Source: Chitinophagaceae bacterium (GTDB taxonomy: Bacteria; Bacteroidota; Bacteroidia; Chitinophagales; Chitinophagaceae). Taken from it: DNA of 11,273 nt. The DNA is taken from NCBI GenBank assembly GCA_020846105.1, contig JADLEN010000246.1:1-11273 (forward strand). The letters are read 5' to 3'. The position numbers were made by a program, and so were the translations under genes. Shown here piece by piece: positions 1,361 through 11,273 of this stretch (its first letter is position 1; each line of letters begins with the position of its first letter). Under the pieces are notes generated by a model. The model did no database searches. It saw only the letters and a list, made by a program, of their open reading frames with translations, and was not told the origin of the DNA.

Positions 1361-2830
1361 ATGGCAGGATTTACAGTAGCGATAGTAGGGCGTCCAAACG
1401 TAGGGAAATCAACCCTTTTCAACAGATTACTAGAACAAAGAAAAGCAATAGTTGACAATATAAGCGGCGTAACACGCGACCGACAATATGGTGTAGCAGA
1501 CTGGAATGGTAAAACATTTAACGTTATAGATACAGGTGGTTTTGTGTCGCGCAGCGAAGATGTATTCGAAAGAGAAATCAGAAAACAAGTGCTTATTGCC
1601 CTTGACGAAGCCGACCTTTTGATGTTTATTGTAGATACCGCCACAGGTATTACTAGCCTAGACGATGACATGGCAGACCTCTTGCGTCGCAGCACCAAAC
1701 CCGTGTTGCTAGTGGTAAATAAAGTAGATAACAGCACCCGCATGCTCGAAGCCACGGAATTTTATGCAATGGGTTTCGATAAGCTGTTTTTTGTATCTGC
1801 AATATCTGGTAGTGGTACTGGTGAATTGCTTGACGAGATAACCGCTCAAATGCCCGACGATGCTGAAATGGCGACACCAAACGTAAAACGAACCATCAAA
1901 AAAGTGCGCAAACAGCTTACCGATACCGAGCTAGAAAACGAATGGGAAAATGATGGTGATAATGAAGAAGATCCAGAAGAGTTTTATACCGAAGATTATG
2001 ACCAAATAGACGAAGAAAACAAGGTAATAGAAATAGATGAGTATGTACCTAAAATAGCCATTATCGGCCAGCCCAATGCAGGTAAATCGACCCTGCTAAA
2101 CGCACTAACGGGCGAAGAGCGCACCATTGTGAGCAATATACCAGGTACCACAAGAGATAGTATCCATACGCATTATAAGCTTTTTGGTAAAGAATTTGTA
2201 CTTATAGACACTGCAGGCTTGCGCAAAAAGAAAAACGTTCATGAAAACCTTGAATTCTACTCAGTAATACGCGCTATACGTGCTATGGACGAGGCCGATA
2301 TCTGCCTGATGGTAATAGATGCCCTTAATGGAATTACCATGCAAGACATCAACATTTTCAGCCTTGCAGCACGTAAGGGAAAAGGTATTGAAGTGCTTGT
2401 AAATAAATGGGATGCTTTTGAAAAAGAAACCAACACAGCACGCGATTATGAGCAGAAAATAAAAGAAAAATTAGCACCGTTCAACGATGTGCCTGTTGTC
2501 TTTATTTCTGCAATGGACAAAACAAGGATTTTTCAAGCAATGGAAAAAACCATTGAAGTACACGAAAACCTTAAACGCAGAATACAAACTTCAAAACTCA
2601 ATGAAACAATGCTCAAAGAAATTCAACGTTTCCCGCCGCCAATGAGCCGTGGACACAATGTGAGCATCAAGTTTGTGCGTCAGCTACCCACCAAAACACC
2701 GTCTTTTGCTTGCTACGCCAACTATCCCGAAGCGCTGAGTAATGCTTACCGCAATTTTATTGAAAATAAACTTCGTGGACATTACAAATTTTCGGGCGTG
2801 CCATTGCGCATTTATTTTAGAAAAAAATAG
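1361..2830 (+). CDS. der: Ribosome biogenesis GTPase Der (EngA)
   Basis: Essential cytoplasmic GTPase with two tandem G domains that acts in assembly of the 50S ribosomal subunit. G domain 1 shows GRPNVGKST (residues 10-18), switch TRD (38-40), DTGG (57-60), NKVD (120-123) and SA (146-147). G domain 2 shows GQPNAGKST (236-244), TTRDS (263-267), DTAGL (283-287), NKWD (348-351) and a later SA. The C-terminal KH-like domain occupies about 400-489 and includes the typical PPPMSRG and GVPLRIYFRKK ends. At 489 aa it is about 50 residues longer than compact homologues (about 435 aa, as in Bacillus). The extra length is a strongly acidic linker between the G domains (about 187-228, mostly E/D/N). The ATG at 1361 gives the standard N-terminus MAGFTVAIVGRPN; there is no Shine-Dalgarno. 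It leads a likely operon, with rimO starting 15 nt downstream. Confidence 0.97.
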   Translation: MAGFTVAIVGRPNVGKSTLFNRLLEQRKAIVDNISGVTRDRQYGVADWNGKTFNVIDTGGFVSRSEDVFEREIRKQVLIALDEADLLMFIVDTATGITSLDDDMADLLRRSTKPVLLVVNKVDNSTRMLEATEFYAMGFDKLFFVSAISGSGTGELLDEITAQMPDDAEMATPNVKRTIKKVRKQLTDTELENEWENDGDNEEDPEEFYTEDYDQIDEENKVIEIDEYVPKIAIIGQPNAGKSTLLNALTGEERTIVSNIPGTTRDSIHTHYKLFGKEFVLIDTAGLRKKKNVHENLEFYSVIRAIRAMDEADICLMVIDALNGITMQDINIFSLAARKGKGIEVLVNKWDAFEKETNTARDYEQKIKEKLAPFNDVPVVFISAMDKTRIFQAMEKTIEVHENLKRRIQTSKLNETMLKEIQRFPPPMSRGHNVSIKFVRQLPTKTPSFACYANYPEALSNAYRNFIENKLRGHYKFSGVPLRIYFRKK

Positions 2831-5553: not shown

Positions 5554-8500
5554 ATGAAAAAACTTAAAACTTTCTGCAAACTAGGCATTTCCATACTTTT
5601 TGTCTTAGGCTTGGCGCAGCACACAGCACTGGCACAAGTATCTGTAGCAGCAACAGCCGGTACTGCTACGGGTAGCTATACCACACTCAATGCAGTTTTT
5701 TCAGCCATTAATGCCGGCACACACCAAGGCGAGGTTACCATCACCATCACAGCCAACACTACCGAGCCAGCCACGCCTATACCGCTATTAAGGTCGGGCA
5801 CAGGGTCTTCTAGTTTTTCAAGAATAGTAATAAAACCTTCAGGCGATCGTATTATCAACTCGGCCACCACACCTGTTACCAACCGTAGCGTTATTGAGCT
5901 TGTGGGTGCGGATAATGTTACAATTGATGGCGATGACCCTGCCACACCCGGTGTGCGCAACCTTACCATACAGTGCGCATCCTCTACCCTAGCGGGTGTG
6001 GGCGCCATCCGTCTAGCATCCAACTCTACAGCAGGTGCAGATGGAGCAGATAACGATACTGTGATGAACTGTATTCTTATAGGCCCAAGAAGTAGTGCTA
6101 CGGCTACTACTATAAACTATGGTATTTGTTTTTCTACAGGCACTACAGCTACTACCACTGGTGCTTACAAAAATCAGAATGCTGTAATAATGAATAATGA
6201 AATTAAAAAATTCTATTACGGTTTGTTCTTAACAGGGGCTAGCTCCACATACCCAAATATTGGTACTAAAGTTTTGAACAATATCATTGGCACCGATGTT
6301 ACAGCAGATAATGTTTATGGCCGAGGAATATATATGAGCTATAGCTCTAGCAACACATCTTCTAGTTCAGACAATGCCGAAATTAGTGGCAACGATATTA
6401 GAGTGGGTAGCTATACCACTACTGGCTATAGTCTTACCATTTCTGGAATAGAATTAACAAGCTACACTGCGGGTACTAAGATTCTGAACAACAATATTCA
6501 TGACATCAACCAACCACTCAACTCTACTAGCTATGGTGCTTATGGCATTTCCATTATCAGTAGTGCTCATACCAATGGCATTGTAATAGCAAACAACTTT
6601 ATCCGTAACATTAGCAATGCTGGTGCTCAAACGGCAATACCTACTACGGGCATGGCTGCAGGTATCTACATTACATCTGGCGGTACAGACTTCGAACTTA
6701 AGCACAATACTATTGTAATGGGTAGCCAAACAAACACAAGCACCACCAAGTCATCTGCTTGTATCACAATGGGTTCAACTGTTAAGTTCTCGAAAATACT
6801 CAACAACATATTCATCAATTTGCACAGTAGTAGCAATGCCTATGGTATTTACAGCACAGCCATTACCAATTTCAATGACGGCAATGTCAATAACAACAAC
6901 TATTATCTTTCTTATGCCTCTGCCAAAGTTGGTTTTTACAACTCACTTGCAAGAGCCTCATTACTTGCTTGGCAATTAGGCGCACTTAAAGATAACCTTT
7001 CGGTAAACGAAAACACTACCTTTACCTCTGCTACAGATTTACACATTCCTGCTGGCACTTTCTCTCTTTGCGAGTCGGGCGGGGCTACCACCACCATTAC
7101 TGGCACTACCAAAGATTATGACAATGAAACAAGACCAGGCACTAGCACTTACGGTTTTGGCACGCGCCCAGATATAGGTGCCGATGAGTTTAACGGCCGC
7201 GTAAACTATACTTGTACCACGCCTGCACCTGGCAACACCAGCATCACACCTTCCTCTATTTGTCTTGGCGAGTCTGTCAAGCTTTATTTATCTTCTACTG
7301 TTGGTGGTACAGGTATTACGTATCAATGGCAATCTTCTAATGATGGTACCACTTACACCGATATTCCAGGTGCCGTATTTAGCGAGTGGATACTAACCCC
7401 CACAACCTATACCTATTACAAATGCAAGGTTACTTGTGTAAATGGCCCTACAACTACTACCTCTACACCGCTACAAATAACTTATAATAACAATGTAGTG
7501 ACTACTACAGGTGCACAAAGATGTGGTAGTGGCCGAGTAACTCTTGCCGCTACAGGCTCTGCTGGCACCACACTACGCTGGTACGATGCTGCAACATCAG
7601 GTACTTTATTAGGTACAGGTGGTTCTCTGCTTACACCCACTATTGGTGGCACTACCGATTTTTATGTAGATGCCGGCATAGCCACTACCGAAACCCGCAA
7701 CACCAACCACACTGGAAAGACTACATGGGAATATGGCGAGCCCGTTTCTCCTTTTTCTGGCTATTATTTGTCTTGCCGCACCCAATACGTTATTCTCGCT
7801 TCTGATTTGCAAAAAACTGGCTTTATTGCTGGCAACTTCAACTCTATAGGCTTATTTGTTTTAAGCAACTATACCAGTGATTATTATGAAAATTTCACTA
7901 TCAAAATGGCACAAACCTCAGCCACAGATTTAAGTGGTGGTTTTTTATCTCCTTCCTTTACTACTGTTTGGGGCGCTACAGATTATTATGTCAATAGTGG
8001 CGATAATACCTTTACCTTCTCTAGTGGTTTCACTTGGGATGGTACTTCCAATATCGTTGTACAAATGTGCTTCGACAATACAAGCTCTTATTACCCTTGG
8101 GAAGCTTATGTACGATCAATAAATATGCCCTACCAAGCTTCTTACCAATCTTTTAGCGACTATGACGACCAATGCAGTGTTGGCTACGGAGACTATGAGT
8201 ATGGCGACTATTACATCCCAGATTTCACATTCAACGGTGTCACCGTTTGTGCTGGCCCGCGCAAAGCCGTTACTGCTACCGTAAATCCGTTACCTGCCAC
8301 CAACATCAGCCCAGCCACAGGCCCAGTAGCAGTCTGCAACCTCGATGCTAAAACCTTTACCACCACCAGCGTAGGCAACCTACAATGGCGCAATGCTAGC
8401 GGGCCTATCTCTGGCGCCACATCTAGTAGCTATAGCACAGGCACAGCAGGCAGCTACAGTGTAGTGGTTACCAACCCCACCACAGGTTGCAAAGACAGTT

Positions 8501-9720
8501 CCGCGGCCGTTACCCTCAATATTGTACCAAGACCATCCGTGTCTATCACACCAAGCACTGTTACCAATATCTGTACAGACTCTTCTATAATGCTCAAAAG
8601 CACCTATACAGGCACAGGCCTTAGCTTTATGTGGTACAAAGACAATGTGCTTATCACCGGTGCTAGTGCAGACTCTTTGCGCATATCCGATGCAGGTGCC
8701 TATACACTTGCTGCCATTGCCGCATCTTGTGCCGATACCAGCAATGCCAGCACACTCAACCTTATTCCACTACCCACAGCTACCTTCGACATCTCTGATA
8801 CCATAAAAGCCATATGCGCAGGCCGCCCTGTAGAGCTAGAAGCACTAGCCATACCCACAGGCTACAGCTACCAATGGCTAAGAGACGATGTAGTAATACC
8901 AGGAGCTACTAGCCGCAAATACATTGCTAGCAACGTCGGCGTATATCAAATACGCATCACCGACAACAACAATTGCCGCAACCTATCAGATACCATCAGT
9001 GTTGTAGTGTCGCCACTAGGCACACCATCCATCACCCCCAACGTAGCCAACATTTGCGAAGGCACTACCCTACTACTCATAGGTAGTGGCGGCGCATACG
9101 CCACCTATTACGAGTGGCAAAACGCTGGCGTCATACTGCCAGACACTACAGACAAGCTACGTGTATCTACCCCAGGTGTATACTCCGTTACCGTTCGCGA
9201 TATCTACAACTGTGTTGCCAAGTCTACCCAATCCATCGTATCGGTATACCCAATGCCTAGCAAGCCAGACATCGTAGAAACACCCGGAATGCTCAGCACC
9301 AAGCTAGCCTACAGCAGCTACCAATGGTACCGCAACGGCAAAGCAATTGCAGGCGCCACCAACCGCAACTTCTTCATCACCTTCGACGGCAAATACTCTG
9401 TAACCGTAACCAACGCCGCAGAATGCAGCAACTACTCCGACACACTCGTGCTCCAAAATCTATCCATAGACCACAGCCGTACCGCCACCGCAGTAGCCAT
9501 ACACCTTTACCCCAACCCTACTAGCCACATCATAAACATAGATGCGCCAATAGTAGTAAACGCTACCATCACCGACATGCAAGGCCGCCGCATAGCCACC
9601 TACACTGCCACCAAGCAGATAGACCTACAAAGCTTTGCAGACGGCACCTACCTCATAGCCATCACAGACAGCGAGGGTAGCCTCTTACAAACCAACAGAG
9701 TAGTAAAACACAGCAACTAA
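5554..9720 (+). CDS. Secreted T9SS-sorted adhesin-like protein: beta-helix plus Ig-like repeats
   Basis: A 1388-residue exported protein. Residues 1-27 form a signal peptide (KK near the start, hydrophobic core, ALA before Gln28). About 60-480 look like a right-handed parallel beta-helix: VTIDGDD, then many turns with N-rich steps such as ILNNIIG and ILNNNIHDI. The segment ends near 545 with the IGADEFNG boundary usual for such helices. Ig-like modules follow (about 553-712, with YQWQSS and LRWYDA). Residues about 713-905 are a Tyr/Asp/Gly-rich beta domain. Five more Ig-like repeats of about 80 aa run from about 919 to 1305, recognisable by YQW/FMW, the GAT turn, AGxYxV and an IC cysteine lost in the last. 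The tail (about 1314-1388, LYPNPT at 1318-1323, then DMQGRRI and DGTYLIAI) is a T9SS type A sorting domain. Role is inferred as surface adhesion or glycan binding; no catalytic site was identified. It is monocistronic, with its own terminator. Confidence 0.9.
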   Translation: MKKLKTFCKLGISILFVLGLAQHTALAQVSVAATAGTATGSYTTLNAVFSAINAGTHQGEVTITITANTTEPATPIPLLRSGTGSSSFSRIVIKPSGDRIINSATTPVTNRSVIELVGADNVTIDGDDPATPGVRNLTIQCASSTLAGVGAIRLASNSTAGADGADNDTVMNCILIGPRSSATATTINYGICFSTGTTATTTGAYKNQNAVIMNNEIKKFYYGLFLTGASSTYPNIGTKVLNNIIGTDVTADNVYGRGIYMSYSSSNTSSSSDNAEISGNDIRVGSYTTTGYSLTISGIELTSYTAGTKILNNNIHDINQPLNSTSYGAYGISIISSAHTNGIVIANNFIRNISNAGAQTAIPTTGMAAGIYITSGGTDFELKHNTIVMGSQTNTSTTKSSACITMGSTVKFSKILNNIFINLHSSSNAYGIYSTAITNFNDGNVNNNNYYLSYASAKVGFYNSLARASLLAWQLGALKDNLSVNENTTFTSATDLHIPAGTFSLCESGGATTTITGTTKDYDNETRPGTSTYGFGTRPDIGADEFNGRVNYTCTTPAPGNTSITPSSICLGESVKLYLSSTVGGTGITYQWQSSNDGTTYTDIPGAVFSEWILTPTTYTYYKCKVTCVNGPTTTTSTPLQITYNNNVVTTTGAQRCGSGRVTLAATGSAGTTLRWYDAATSGTLLGTGGSLLTPTIGGTTDFYVDAGIATTETRNTNHTGKTTWEYGEPVSPFSGYYLSCRTQYVILASDLQKTGFIAGNFNSIGLFVLSNYTSDYYENFTIKMAQTSATDLSGGFLSPSFTTVWGATDYYVNSGDNTFTFSSGFTWDGTSNIVVQMCFDNTSSYYPWEAYVRSINMPYQASYQSFSDYDDQCSVGYGDYEYGDYYIPDFTFNGVTVCAGPRKAVTATVNPLPATNISPATGPVAVCNLDAKTFTTTSVGNLQWRNASGPISGATSSSYSTGTAGSYSVVVTNPTTGCKDSSAAVTLNIVPRPSVSITPSTVTNICTDSSIMLKSTYTGTGLSFMWYKDNVLITGASADSLRISDAGAYTLAAIAASCADTSNASTLNLIPLPTATFDISDTIKAICAGRPVELEALAIPTGYSYQWLRDDVVIPGATSRKYIASNVGVYQIRITDNNNCRNLSDTISVVVSPLGTPSITPNVANICEGTTLLLIGSGGAYATYYEWQNAGVILPDTTDKLRVSTPGVYSVTVRDIYNCVAKSTQSIVSVYPMPSKPDIVETPGMLSTKLAYSSYQWYRNGKAIAGATNRNFFITFDGKYSVTVTNAAECSNYSDTLVLQNLSIDHSRTATAVAIHLYPNPTSHIINIDAPIVVNATITDMQGRRIATYTATKQIDLQSFADGTYLIAITDSEGSLLQTNRVVKHSN

Positions 9721-9780: not shown

Positions 9781-9966
9781 TGCCTATTGTGTAGCTTTTG
9801 GGCGGTTAAGCTATTCCTTACTATTAGGCTTTGGGGCTCCAGCTATCCACTACTACTCCGCCACAAGGCCGCCGCCGCAAAGGCTTCAGCGGGGTAGCCG
9901 CTGCTATCTGGCGCAGGCTCAGCTTTTGTCTTGCTATGGGGCTTTGCCGGCCGCGTAGGCACAGCA
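9781..9966. other. GC-rich convergent intergenic spacer with hairpin, no gene seen
   Basis: This sequence between two converging genes is visibly richer in G+C than the rest of the window from about 9830 on. It contains a GCCGCCGCCGC tract, a hairpin CAGCGG (loop GGTAG) CCGCTG at 9887-9903, and related phrases GGCTCCAGCTATC and GGCTTCAGC...GCTATC. No credible reading frame is seen. It may be a palindromic extragenic repeat of this genome, but a single copy cannot prove that. Confidence 0.45.
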
Positions 9967-10917
9967 CTACAACAGCTGCAAAGTATAAGCACCATCTTGC
10001 ACCGCAGACAGGTTTTGCACTTTCAGAAACCGATGCATAGCCACATCGCCAAGGTCTGCCGCCAAAAAATGCAACTCAGCCATAGGCGCTACCCGCACCA
10101 CAGGCTGCCCTACAGCTGCCTGTGCAGTAGCACCTAGCCAAAACACCAGCTCGGTGCCACCACGGTTCACGATACGCAGCGCATCGCCAGGCAAGAAAGT
10201 GTGGGTAAGCACCAAGCGGCTCATACCTGCTTTGATACCACGTTGGTAGCGGCTCTGCTCGTGGCGGCGTATGGTTTTGGTATCGAAAAAGGTGGCCACA
10301 CTTTGCGGGCGACCCTTGTAATACCTCATGAGTGCACCTAGCACAGCATACAGCTCTGTACACACCGCCACACGCGCATGCTCTACGGCAGTACTGTACT
10401 GTTTGGTACTGCTTTTGTTTTGCAATTGCTGGCCATTGGCTATTTGTAGCTTGTCGTAAAAGGCAGCAACATCTTGCAGCGTGGCAGCTAGTGCAGGTAT
10501 GGCTTGCAGCATTAGTACTAGTGCGCCTACCGATGATATAATATCGCCTTGGCTACCTTTTTGGAAAGGCACACGCCTATACGGTAGCAGGCGTATATAC
10601 TCCATGCTGCGCTGCCTGTATAGCTGCTGTATCTGTATGTCCCATTCTTGTATTTTGCTATTGCGTAGCTCTTTTAGCAGGCGCTGTAGGCTAATGGTAC
10701 GGCTTTTTTGTTTGCCTTTTTGCCCAGCCCAGTCTAGGTAGGCTTGGCCATAGGCTTGCACAAATGGTTGTAGCTCGGCGTGTAGTGTGGCAAAAAAGGG
10801 ATTGGATATTTGCCCATGCAATGCAATGAGCGTATGGTGTGCTATTTTCTGGCAGTTGCGGTAAGAGTTTACCGTGCTGCTTTCGAAACTGTTTTGTAAA
10901 TATATCCAAGTGCGCAT
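9967..10917 (-). CDS. Hypothetical protein, family not recognised
   Basis: I do not recognise this protein and assign no function. From the ATG at 10917 it has 316 residues (MRTWIYLQNSFESS...). The frame stays open to a TTG at 10971, which would give 334 residues; I prefer the ATG because TTG starts are rare and the added 18 residues show no signal peptide or domain. The first two thirds look mainly helical, with basic stretches (GQKGKQKSR; LLPYRRVPFQKG) and one hydrophobic helix (GALVLMLQAIPALAATL). The last 80 or so residues look like a small beta domain (RLVLTHTFLPGDALRIVNRGG, then AELHFLAADLG and a hydrophobic C-terminus AYTLQLL). There is no signal peptide or T9SS tail, so it is probably cytoplasmic. 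Its G+C is higher than that of the genes to its left. It is convergent with the adhesin, and its upstream side faces the 42-bp array. Confidence 0.75.
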   Translation of the reverse strand: MRTWIYLQNSFESSTVNSYRNCQKIAHHTLIALHGQISNPFFATLHAELQPFVQAYGQAYLDWAGQKGKQKSRTISLQRLLKELRNSKIQEWDIQIQQLYRQRSMEYIRLLPYRRVPFQKGSQGDIISSVGALVLMLQAIPALAATLQDVAAFYDKLQIANGQQLQNKSSTKQYSTAVEHARVAVCTELYAVLGALMRYYKGRPQSVATFFDTKTIRRHEQSRYQRGIKAGMSRLVLTHTFLPGDALRIVNRGGTELVFWLGATAQAAVGQPVVRVAPMAELHFLAADLGDVAMHRFLKVQNLSAVQDGAYTLQLL

Positions 10918-11018
10918 GGCTGGCAATTTTTTATTTGTAGGTAAAAATGATTTGATAATAGCTAGCGCCAAAGAGGCTATGGTATAAAAATAACCATTTG
11001 AGCTGCATTGTATTGCTA

Positions 11019-11026
11019 CAAAGATA
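11019..11026 (-). promoter_or_regulatory. Candidate -7 promoter element for the minus-strand hypothetical gene
   Basis: On the minus strand this reads TATCTTTG, an exact TAnnTTTG match. Transcription would start near 11012 and run into the hypothetical gene with a leader of about 95 nt to the ATG at 10917 (about 40 nt to the TTG). No TTTG -33 box is seen at 17-21 nt. The element lies 17 bp from the first unit of the tandem array. Confidence 0.45.
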
Positions 11027-11042
11027 TAAAATTAGTTGTTTT

Positions 11043-11273
11043 AGTAGGTTTGTGTTTTTACAAACTAGCTAAATCTAGCGATTGAGTAGGTTTGTGTTTT
11101 TACAAACTATTTAAATCTAACGATTGAGTAGGTTTGTGTTTTTACAAACTAGCTAAATCTAACGATTGAGTATGTTTGTGTTTTTACAAACTAGCTAAAT
11201 CTAACGATTGAGTAGGTTTGTGTTTTTACAAACTAGTTAAATCTAGTGATTGAGTAAGTTTGTGTTTTTACAA
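11043..11273. repeat. 42-bp tandem repeat array, 5.5 copies, continuing beyond the window
   Basis: Units begin at 11043, 11085, 11127, 11169, 11211 and 11253 (the last cut by the window end), a period of exactly 42 with no insertion or deletion. Each starts AGTAGG or a one-base variant. Unit positions 6-25 (GTTTGTGTTTTTACAAACTA) are invariant and contain a hairpin GTTTGT, loop GTTTTT, ACAAAC. Positions 26-42 (GCTAAATCTAGCGATTG in unit 1) vary only at 26, 27, 36 and 37. Position 5 is the only other variable site. There are no unique spacers between copies. The array lies upstream of the minus-strand hypothetical gene; nothing visible shows whether it is transcribed. Confidence 0.95.

What the first reader, a model, noticed from the sequence alone, without database searches (positions are those of the whole stretch)
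11043..11273. Exact 42-bp tandem array with a conserved hairpin core, not CRISPR
Five full units and half a sixth repeat with strict 42-bp spacing and a 20-bp invariant core holding a 6-bp inverted repeat. 42 bp equals four turns of B-DNA, so the same face of every unit, including its T5 tract, would align. That is what a cooperatively bound protein array needs. The plan of one small inverted repeat per direct repeat of about 43 bp is the known layout of the F-plasmid sopC centromere. Candidate roles are a partition or condensin-type site, an iteron-like origin, a phase-variable VNTR upstream of the hypothetical gene, or a transcribed array of hairpins. None is proven by this sequence.
Basis: partly seen in the sequence, partly recalled or inferred. 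Interest (0 to 1): 0.72.

Follow-up and report, generated by a model that had tools for sequence, protein, structure and literature searches.

The report
Gene family with private 41/42-bp arrays
The 42-base repeat array sits just upstream of a gene from an undescribed, multi-copy bacterial protein family in which nearly every copy examined has its own, differently spelled array of 41- or 42-base repeats, which points to an unknown protein-and-repeat system in Bacteroidia.

Summary
The array is real: five full 42-bp units plus 21 bp, running into a contig end; contig C58 of the same assembly begins with the same units. The repeat itself was not found in 58 relatives, but the architecture is conserved. 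It lies 125 bp upstream of a 316-aa gene (9967-10917, minus) of an orphan family. Its one paralog in the genome also has an upstream 42-bp array, of unrelated sequence. In 77 of 81 family loci the best upstream self-repeat is at 41/42 bp or a multiple (downstream 6 of 79); 25 of 27 further loci from other families of the class agree. Units differ between paralogs, but their similarity rises with protein relatedness. In two complete carriers, 8 of 12 gene-less arrays match an array beside a family gene of the same genome; in a third carrier only 1 of 13 does, in the window's own genome none was found. The 41/42-bp rule (four DNA turns), lack of strand bias and some reversed arrays favour DNA over RNA. 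Best reading: each protein has a private, helically phased DNA repeat, beside its gene and in some genomes dispersed. Binding is inferred, not shown. Partition, CRISPR, iteron and type III toxin-antitoxin readings are not supported.

The parts
11043..11273 (+). 42-bp tandem array, five full units and 21 bp, cut by the contig end
   Evidence: continued by contig C58 (L004:1-124)
11048..11067 (.). first copy of the 20-bp invariant core with the 6-bp inverted repeat GTTTGT/ACAAAC
11001..11042 (.). decayed unit at the gene-side edge of the array
   Evidence: 74-78% to array units
10918..11042 (.). 125-bp spacer between array and start codon (includes the decayed unit)
9967..10917 (-). 316-aa gene of the orphan family (ATG at 10917; the ORF list also allows a TTG start at 10971)
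   Evidence: no match in Pfam/NCBIfam/PADLOC for the window's protein

Best explanation
The array is the private DNA repeat of the 316-aa protein encoded 125 bp away; protein and array are one copy of a two-part element found in part of the class Bacteroidia, with two to about ten copies in the carriers counted. Shown: nearly every family gene examined has its own 41/42-bp array on its 5' side; units differ between paralogs, yet related proteins tend to have related units; in two complete genomes the same private units also form gene-less arrays elsewhere. Inferred: the protein recognises its own unit as double-stranded DNA, units lying on one helical face because 41-42 bp is four turns, and acts in trans on dispersed copies, either as an array-bound structural or regulatory protein that also controls its own promoter, or as a factor that favours birth and spread of such arrays.
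For: Best upstream lag 41/42 or multiple in 77 of 81 loci, downstream 6 of 79; lag-41/42 identity >=0.55 in 76 of 81 upstream, 3 of 79 downstream, 35 of 2000 random control stretches. Other families of the class: 25 of 27 upstream, 4 of 26 downstream. All 7 family genes met in 1.2 Mb of census have an array. Unit similarity follows protein relatedness: z>3 in 13 of 16 pairs at >=80% identity, 9 of 14 at 70-80%, 6 of 264 sampled below 30%. 8 of 12 gene-less arrays in G495 and G451 match a gene-side array of the same genome, scores 149-340 against shuffle maxima 22-48. Non-coding 41/42 arrays, gene-side ones included: 5, 5 and 11 per 400 kb in three carriers, 2 in 1.44 Mb of control. No strand bias in folding; reversed related arrays, e.g. 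L138/L139.
Against: No binding was tested. The protein has no recognised DNA-binding fold and is only mildly basic on average (mean pI 8.0, 12 of 39 acidic). Close proteins can have unrelated arrays: L129/L140 (88% identity), L109/L118 (86%), L139/L141 (85%). Four of 81 loci lack the rule (L191, L192, L205, L211). No gene-less sibling was found in the window's own 73%-complete genome for either array and only 1 of 13 in G225, compared with 7 of its gene-side stretches; four of 12 fail in G495/G451. The carrier/control contrast rests on three genomes. A dyad is lacking in 30 of 67 units, and changes inside dyads are mostly one-sided (126 cells against 3 compensatory).
Confidence: 0.5

Rival explanations
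1. Cis-only expression element: the array tunes the promoter of its gene (phased operator for a host factor, or a bend), copy number giving variable expression; gene-less arrays are left by gene loss or duplication.
For: Fixed 5' side and typical spacer of about 100-300 bp; copy number differs between orthologous arrays (15 against 6 units).
Against: Private units per paralog are odd for one host factor; 8 of 12 gene-less arrays keep the unit of a gene-side array in the same genome; promoter boxes between array and gene not above chance by much (12 of 66, 8.2 expected).
Confidence: 0.17
2. RNA array, in the style of a type III toxin-antitoxin locus: the repeats are transcribed with the gene and the RNA units bind the protein.
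For: Tandem repeats upstream of a gene, private to each copy, as in ToxIN (PMC5086642, passages); units fold better than shuffles (mean z -1.69 sense, -1.81 antisense); G-T exceeds A-C mismatches in dyads, 57 to 36.
Against: No strand preference against shuffles (p 0.29; raw energies favour the antisense strand in 45 of 67); related arrays sometimes reversed; terminator-like hairpins in the spacer 14 of 65 sense and 14 of 65 antisense (6 expected); period strictly 41/42; no PADLOC or Pfam toxin match.
Confidence: 0.12
3. Coincident satellites: these genomes make 21/41/42-bp arrays in intergenic DNA by some general mechanism, and the genes sit in such regions without a functional tie.
For: Gene-less arrays are common in carriers, and G225 has many of period 21, 41, 42, 62 and 63 with only 1 of 13 41/42-type ones related to a gene-side array.
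Against: 77 of 81 upstream against 6 of 79 downstream and 35 of 2000 controls at the 0.55 level; same-genome matches of gene-less units to gene-side units.
Confidence: 0.13
4. Partition site or iteron-like origin.
Against: No ParA/ParB/Rep-type Pfam match in four window proteins or 39 family members; nine or so sites on one chromosome; no family hit among 72,556 plasmid records with one member as query.
Confidence: 0.03

Closest known systems
REPtrons: RAYT transposase genes flanked by REP palindromes that are also dispersed in the genome (PMC3733652, abstract and the section on tyrosine transposases)
   Same: A gene with its own repeat beside it and copies of that repeat elsewhere; several repeat families per genome, each with its gene; palindromic units.
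   Different: No tyrosine/HUH transposase (only W, L and Q invariant in 39 members); units in tandem arrays of fixed 41/42-bp period on the 5' side only; no dispersed copies found in the window's own genome.
Type III toxin-antitoxin loci (ToxIN, AbiQ, CptIN, TenpIN; PMC5086642, passages)
   Same: Tandem repeats of constant length directly upstream of a gene, diverging between systems while unit length stays constant.
   Different: 41/42 bp instead of 34-36 nt for the ToxIN family; no regular terminator between array and gene; some related arrays reversed; protein about 316 aa without a known toxin match.
F-plasmid sopC centromere (recalled)
   Same: Tandem units of about four helical turns with an inverted repeat each.
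   Different: No ParA/ParB partner seen; several private arrays per chromosome.

Membership tests
REPtron (RAYT/REP) | Gene encodes a tyrosine transposase of the HUH group | tested here: not met
   No transposase match in Pfam or NCBIfam for 39 members (one member has a weak Integrase_1 hit, E 0.0097); no invariant His or Tyr
REPtron (RAYT/REP) | The gene's repeat is also dispersed in the genome | tested here: inconclusive
   8 of 12 gene-less arrays in G495/G451; 1 of 13 in G225; none found in the window's genome
Type III toxin-antitoxin | Tandem repeats directly upstream of the gene | tested here: met
Type III toxin-antitoxin | Rho-independent terminator between repeats and gene | tested here: not met
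   14 of 65 spacers on the sense strand, 14 of 65 on the other, 6 expected (own simple scan); none in the window's spacer
Type III toxin-antitoxin | Protein is an endoribonuclease of the ToxN/CptN/TenpN kind | tested here: inconclusive
   No match in Pfam or PADLOC and no toxin in the fold lists seen, which cannot exclude it
Type III toxin-antitoxin | Repeats transcribed on the gene's strand | tested here: inconclusive
   No strand bias in folding, some reversed arrays; no RNA data
sopC/parS-type partition site | ParA and ParB encoded next to the array | tested here: inconclusive
   No such match in the four window proteins scanned; the C58 genes were not scanned
CRISPR array | Unique spacers between conserved repeats | tested here: not met
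   37 of 42 columns invariant over seven full units

The most novel reading that the evidence does not exclude
A new class of two-part element in Bacteroidia: a fast-evolving, apparently non-enzymatic protein family whose paralogs each recognise a private, helically phased 41/42-bp satellite, maintain or create arrays of it with a fixed ruler beside their gene and across the genome, and thereby organise, mark or parasitise the chromosome.
Probability: 0.35. Interest if true: 0.92.

Novelty: categorically new. Interest (0 to 1): 0.82.

Why it matters
If right, part of the Bacteroidia carries several parallel, mutually private pairs of a protein and a DNA satellite with an invariant ruler of four helical turns. 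That would be a new kind of protein-DNA system that re-tunes its specificity quickly, a bacterial parallel to co-evolving satellites and their binders, and a possible source of orthogonal DNA-binding arrays. It would also explain a class of bacterial minisatellites. The claim is directly testable with one purified protein and one array.

Full report
What is there. The array at 11043-11273 is real and the only tandem array that TRF reports in the window: five full 42-bp units and 21 bp, no indels; 0 of 200 shuffles gave any array of score 100. The window is a whole contig, C246, of a 73%-complete assembly of 358 contigs. C58 of the same assembly starts with a unit tail and three more units in the same orientation, the first full one identical to the last full window unit, the last one decayed. 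The simplest reading is one array of nine or more units broken by the assembler. The gene on the far side (370 aa, L004:397-1509, minus) has its 3' end towards the array; of the longer ORFs on both sides the one whose 5' end faces the array is the 316-aa gene at 9967-10917, minus. The 6-bp inverted repeat of the window unit is by itself within chance (p 0.29).

The turn of the case. The repeat was not found by DNA in 58 relatives, and the gene not in the five other genomes of the genus. But the genome has a paralog of the gene, 48-49% identical, on contig C201, and it too has a 42-bp array, 106 bp upstream of its start, with the unrelated unit AAATACACTTGTATTTACTCGTCGGCTACATCTCCGACCTAT.

A rule beyond the species. 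Re-searched with all candidates scored, G225, G495 and G451 gave 9, 9 and 10 match rows, some of them broken genes. I examined 85 loci: the 45 genes behind the 46 rows, and 40 of the 91 rows, picked by hand to cover its genomes. Four were left out before counting: L111 and L151 (contig ends) and L116 and L150 (genes without their N-terminal part; L116 has 21-bp repeats upstream, L150 none). In the other 81, the best self-repeat lag within 900 bp upstream is 41, 42 or a multiple in 77; downstream in 6 of 79. Identity of at least 0.55 at lag 41/42: 76 of 81 upstream, 3 of 79 downstream, 35 of 2000 random stretches from 80 control loci. TRF calls such an array in 67 of 81. Misses by best lag: L191, L192, L205, L211. 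Of the 28 loci handed out, 27 could be analysed (L264 has no ORF of 80 aa): best lag fits in 25, with identity >=0.55 in 24, TRF in 22; downstream 4 of 26; misses L260 and L261, weak L250. Of 67 best upstream TRF arrays with score >=100 and period >=25, 66 have 41, 42 or multiples; one has 250. In G451 one gene (L277) has its array about 1.5 kb upstream. Many of these loci are related to each other, so the counts are not independent events.

Private units. Unit similarity rises with protein relatedness: z>3 in 13 of 16 pairs at >=80% identity, 9 of 14 at 70-80%, 4 of 21 at 55-70%, 13 of 79 at 45-55%, 8 of 125 at 38-45%, 5 of 43 at 30-38% and 6 of 264 below 30%, the last two groups sampled. Exceptions at the top are L129/L140, L109/L118 and L139/L141. 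For L129/L140 the homologous block runs from about 137 bp before the start to 21 bp past the stop and ends short of the arrays. Loci L183 and L189 with 87% identical flanks keep the outer part of the unit and the centre of its dyad but differ in the stem (CTCTGGC/GCCAGAG against GTGGGGA/TCCCCAC), read by eye.

Dyads. A dyad with arms of at least 5 bp and a loop of at most 12 occurs in 37 of 67 units against 49 of 340 shuffled units; its columns are more conserved between units than the rest (0.942 against 0.910; higher in 27 of 37). Inside arrays, changed pairs are mostly one-sided (126 cells, 3 compensatory). A stricter test is significant in 20 of 68 rows. The common feature is the period, not the hairpin.

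Arrays without genes. In 400 kb each of G495, G451 and G225 there are seven family genes, each with an array. Of 12 gene-less arrays of 41/42-type period in G495 and G451, 8 match an array beside a family gene of the same genome (scores 149-340, shuffle maxima 22-48); 2566492 (33), 2630070, 2749945 and 2823290 do not. Six of the eight fit their own genome's gene-side array clearly better than the sister's, 476305 about equally (225, 223), 729369 less well (149, 160). In G225 1 of 13 such clusters matches one of seven gene-side stretches compared (L391, score 134). G502 and G487 hold gene-less arrays of the unit type seen beside three G451 loci, with 15 and 6 units at an orthologous site with 92% identical flanks. 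Non-coding 41/42 arrays, gene-side ones included, number 5, 5 and 11 per 400 kb against 2 in 1.44 Mb of control and 0 in 53 kb of same-genus non-carriers. The window's genome showed no further copy of either of its arrays.

DNA or RNA. Units fold better than composition shuffles on both strands (mean z -1.69 sense, -1.81 antisense) without preference (p 0.29); raw energies favour the antisense strand in 45 of 67. Some related arrays are reversed relative to their genes (L138/L139, L278/L327), others not (L277/L327). The 41/42 rule, with alternating period 83 in L185 and L187, fits four turns of B-DNA. G-T over A-C mismatches (57 to 36) is a weak point for sense RNA.

The protein. Mostly 316-323 aa, three invariant columns among 39 members; only weak, single- or two-member hits in Pfam, NCBIfam, PADLOC, PHROGs and PDB sequences. 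The model (pLDDT 88, pTM 0.51) has two helices of about 58 residues and a jelly-roll-like C-terminal domain; neither part has a telling structural neighbour.

Reading. I commit to a two-part DNA element: a paralog-specific protein and its private, helically phased repeat. Shown: association, period, side bias, privacy, same-genome siblings in two genomes. Inferred: recognition, action in trans, consequence for expression or chromosome. It works most like a REPtron in logic but lacks its transposase, and like a type III toxin-antitoxin locus in layout but lacks its terminator and a recognised toxin. Gene names such as Der, RimO or BamA used for neighbours are recalled, apart from the Pfam matches.

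Noticed in passing
window 9832-9923 (minus); L017:5854-5928 (plus): Flavo-1 RNA (RF01705) lies downstream of both family genes of this genome on the gene's strand: below the gathering score in the window (29.8 of 42 bits), above it in L017 (54.2).
   Followed up: no
L275, L280 and sister genomes G451, G502, G487, G495: Dispersed repeats of about 140 bp with dozens of listed matches per genome (80-110 match rows each), often near the arrays.
   Followed up: no
L280 (G495:694000-708000): The two flanks of this family gene are 18-23 kb apart in G451, G502 and G487, one of them inverted: the element sits at a rearrangement junction.
   Followed up: no
L275:5761-5995 and 7614-7848: 235-bp direct repeats (94%) enclose array and gene; the duplicate locus L276, whose gene is broken, shows no second copy.
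   Followed up: partly
L377-L396 (G225): Non-coding tandem arrays of period 21, 41, 42, 62 and 63 are frequent in this genome (24 of 25 non-coding clusters in 400 kb), a wider helical-multiple pattern.
   Followed up: partly
window 5554-9720 (plus): 1388-aa protein with Ig-like domains and a Por secretion tail, without a tblastn hit in the nine related loci compared, next to the family gene.
   Followed up: no
L024: Record titled Phycisphaerales encodes a protein 93% identical to window 1361-2830 and shares its gene neighbours; probably a mislabelled bin.
   Followed up: no
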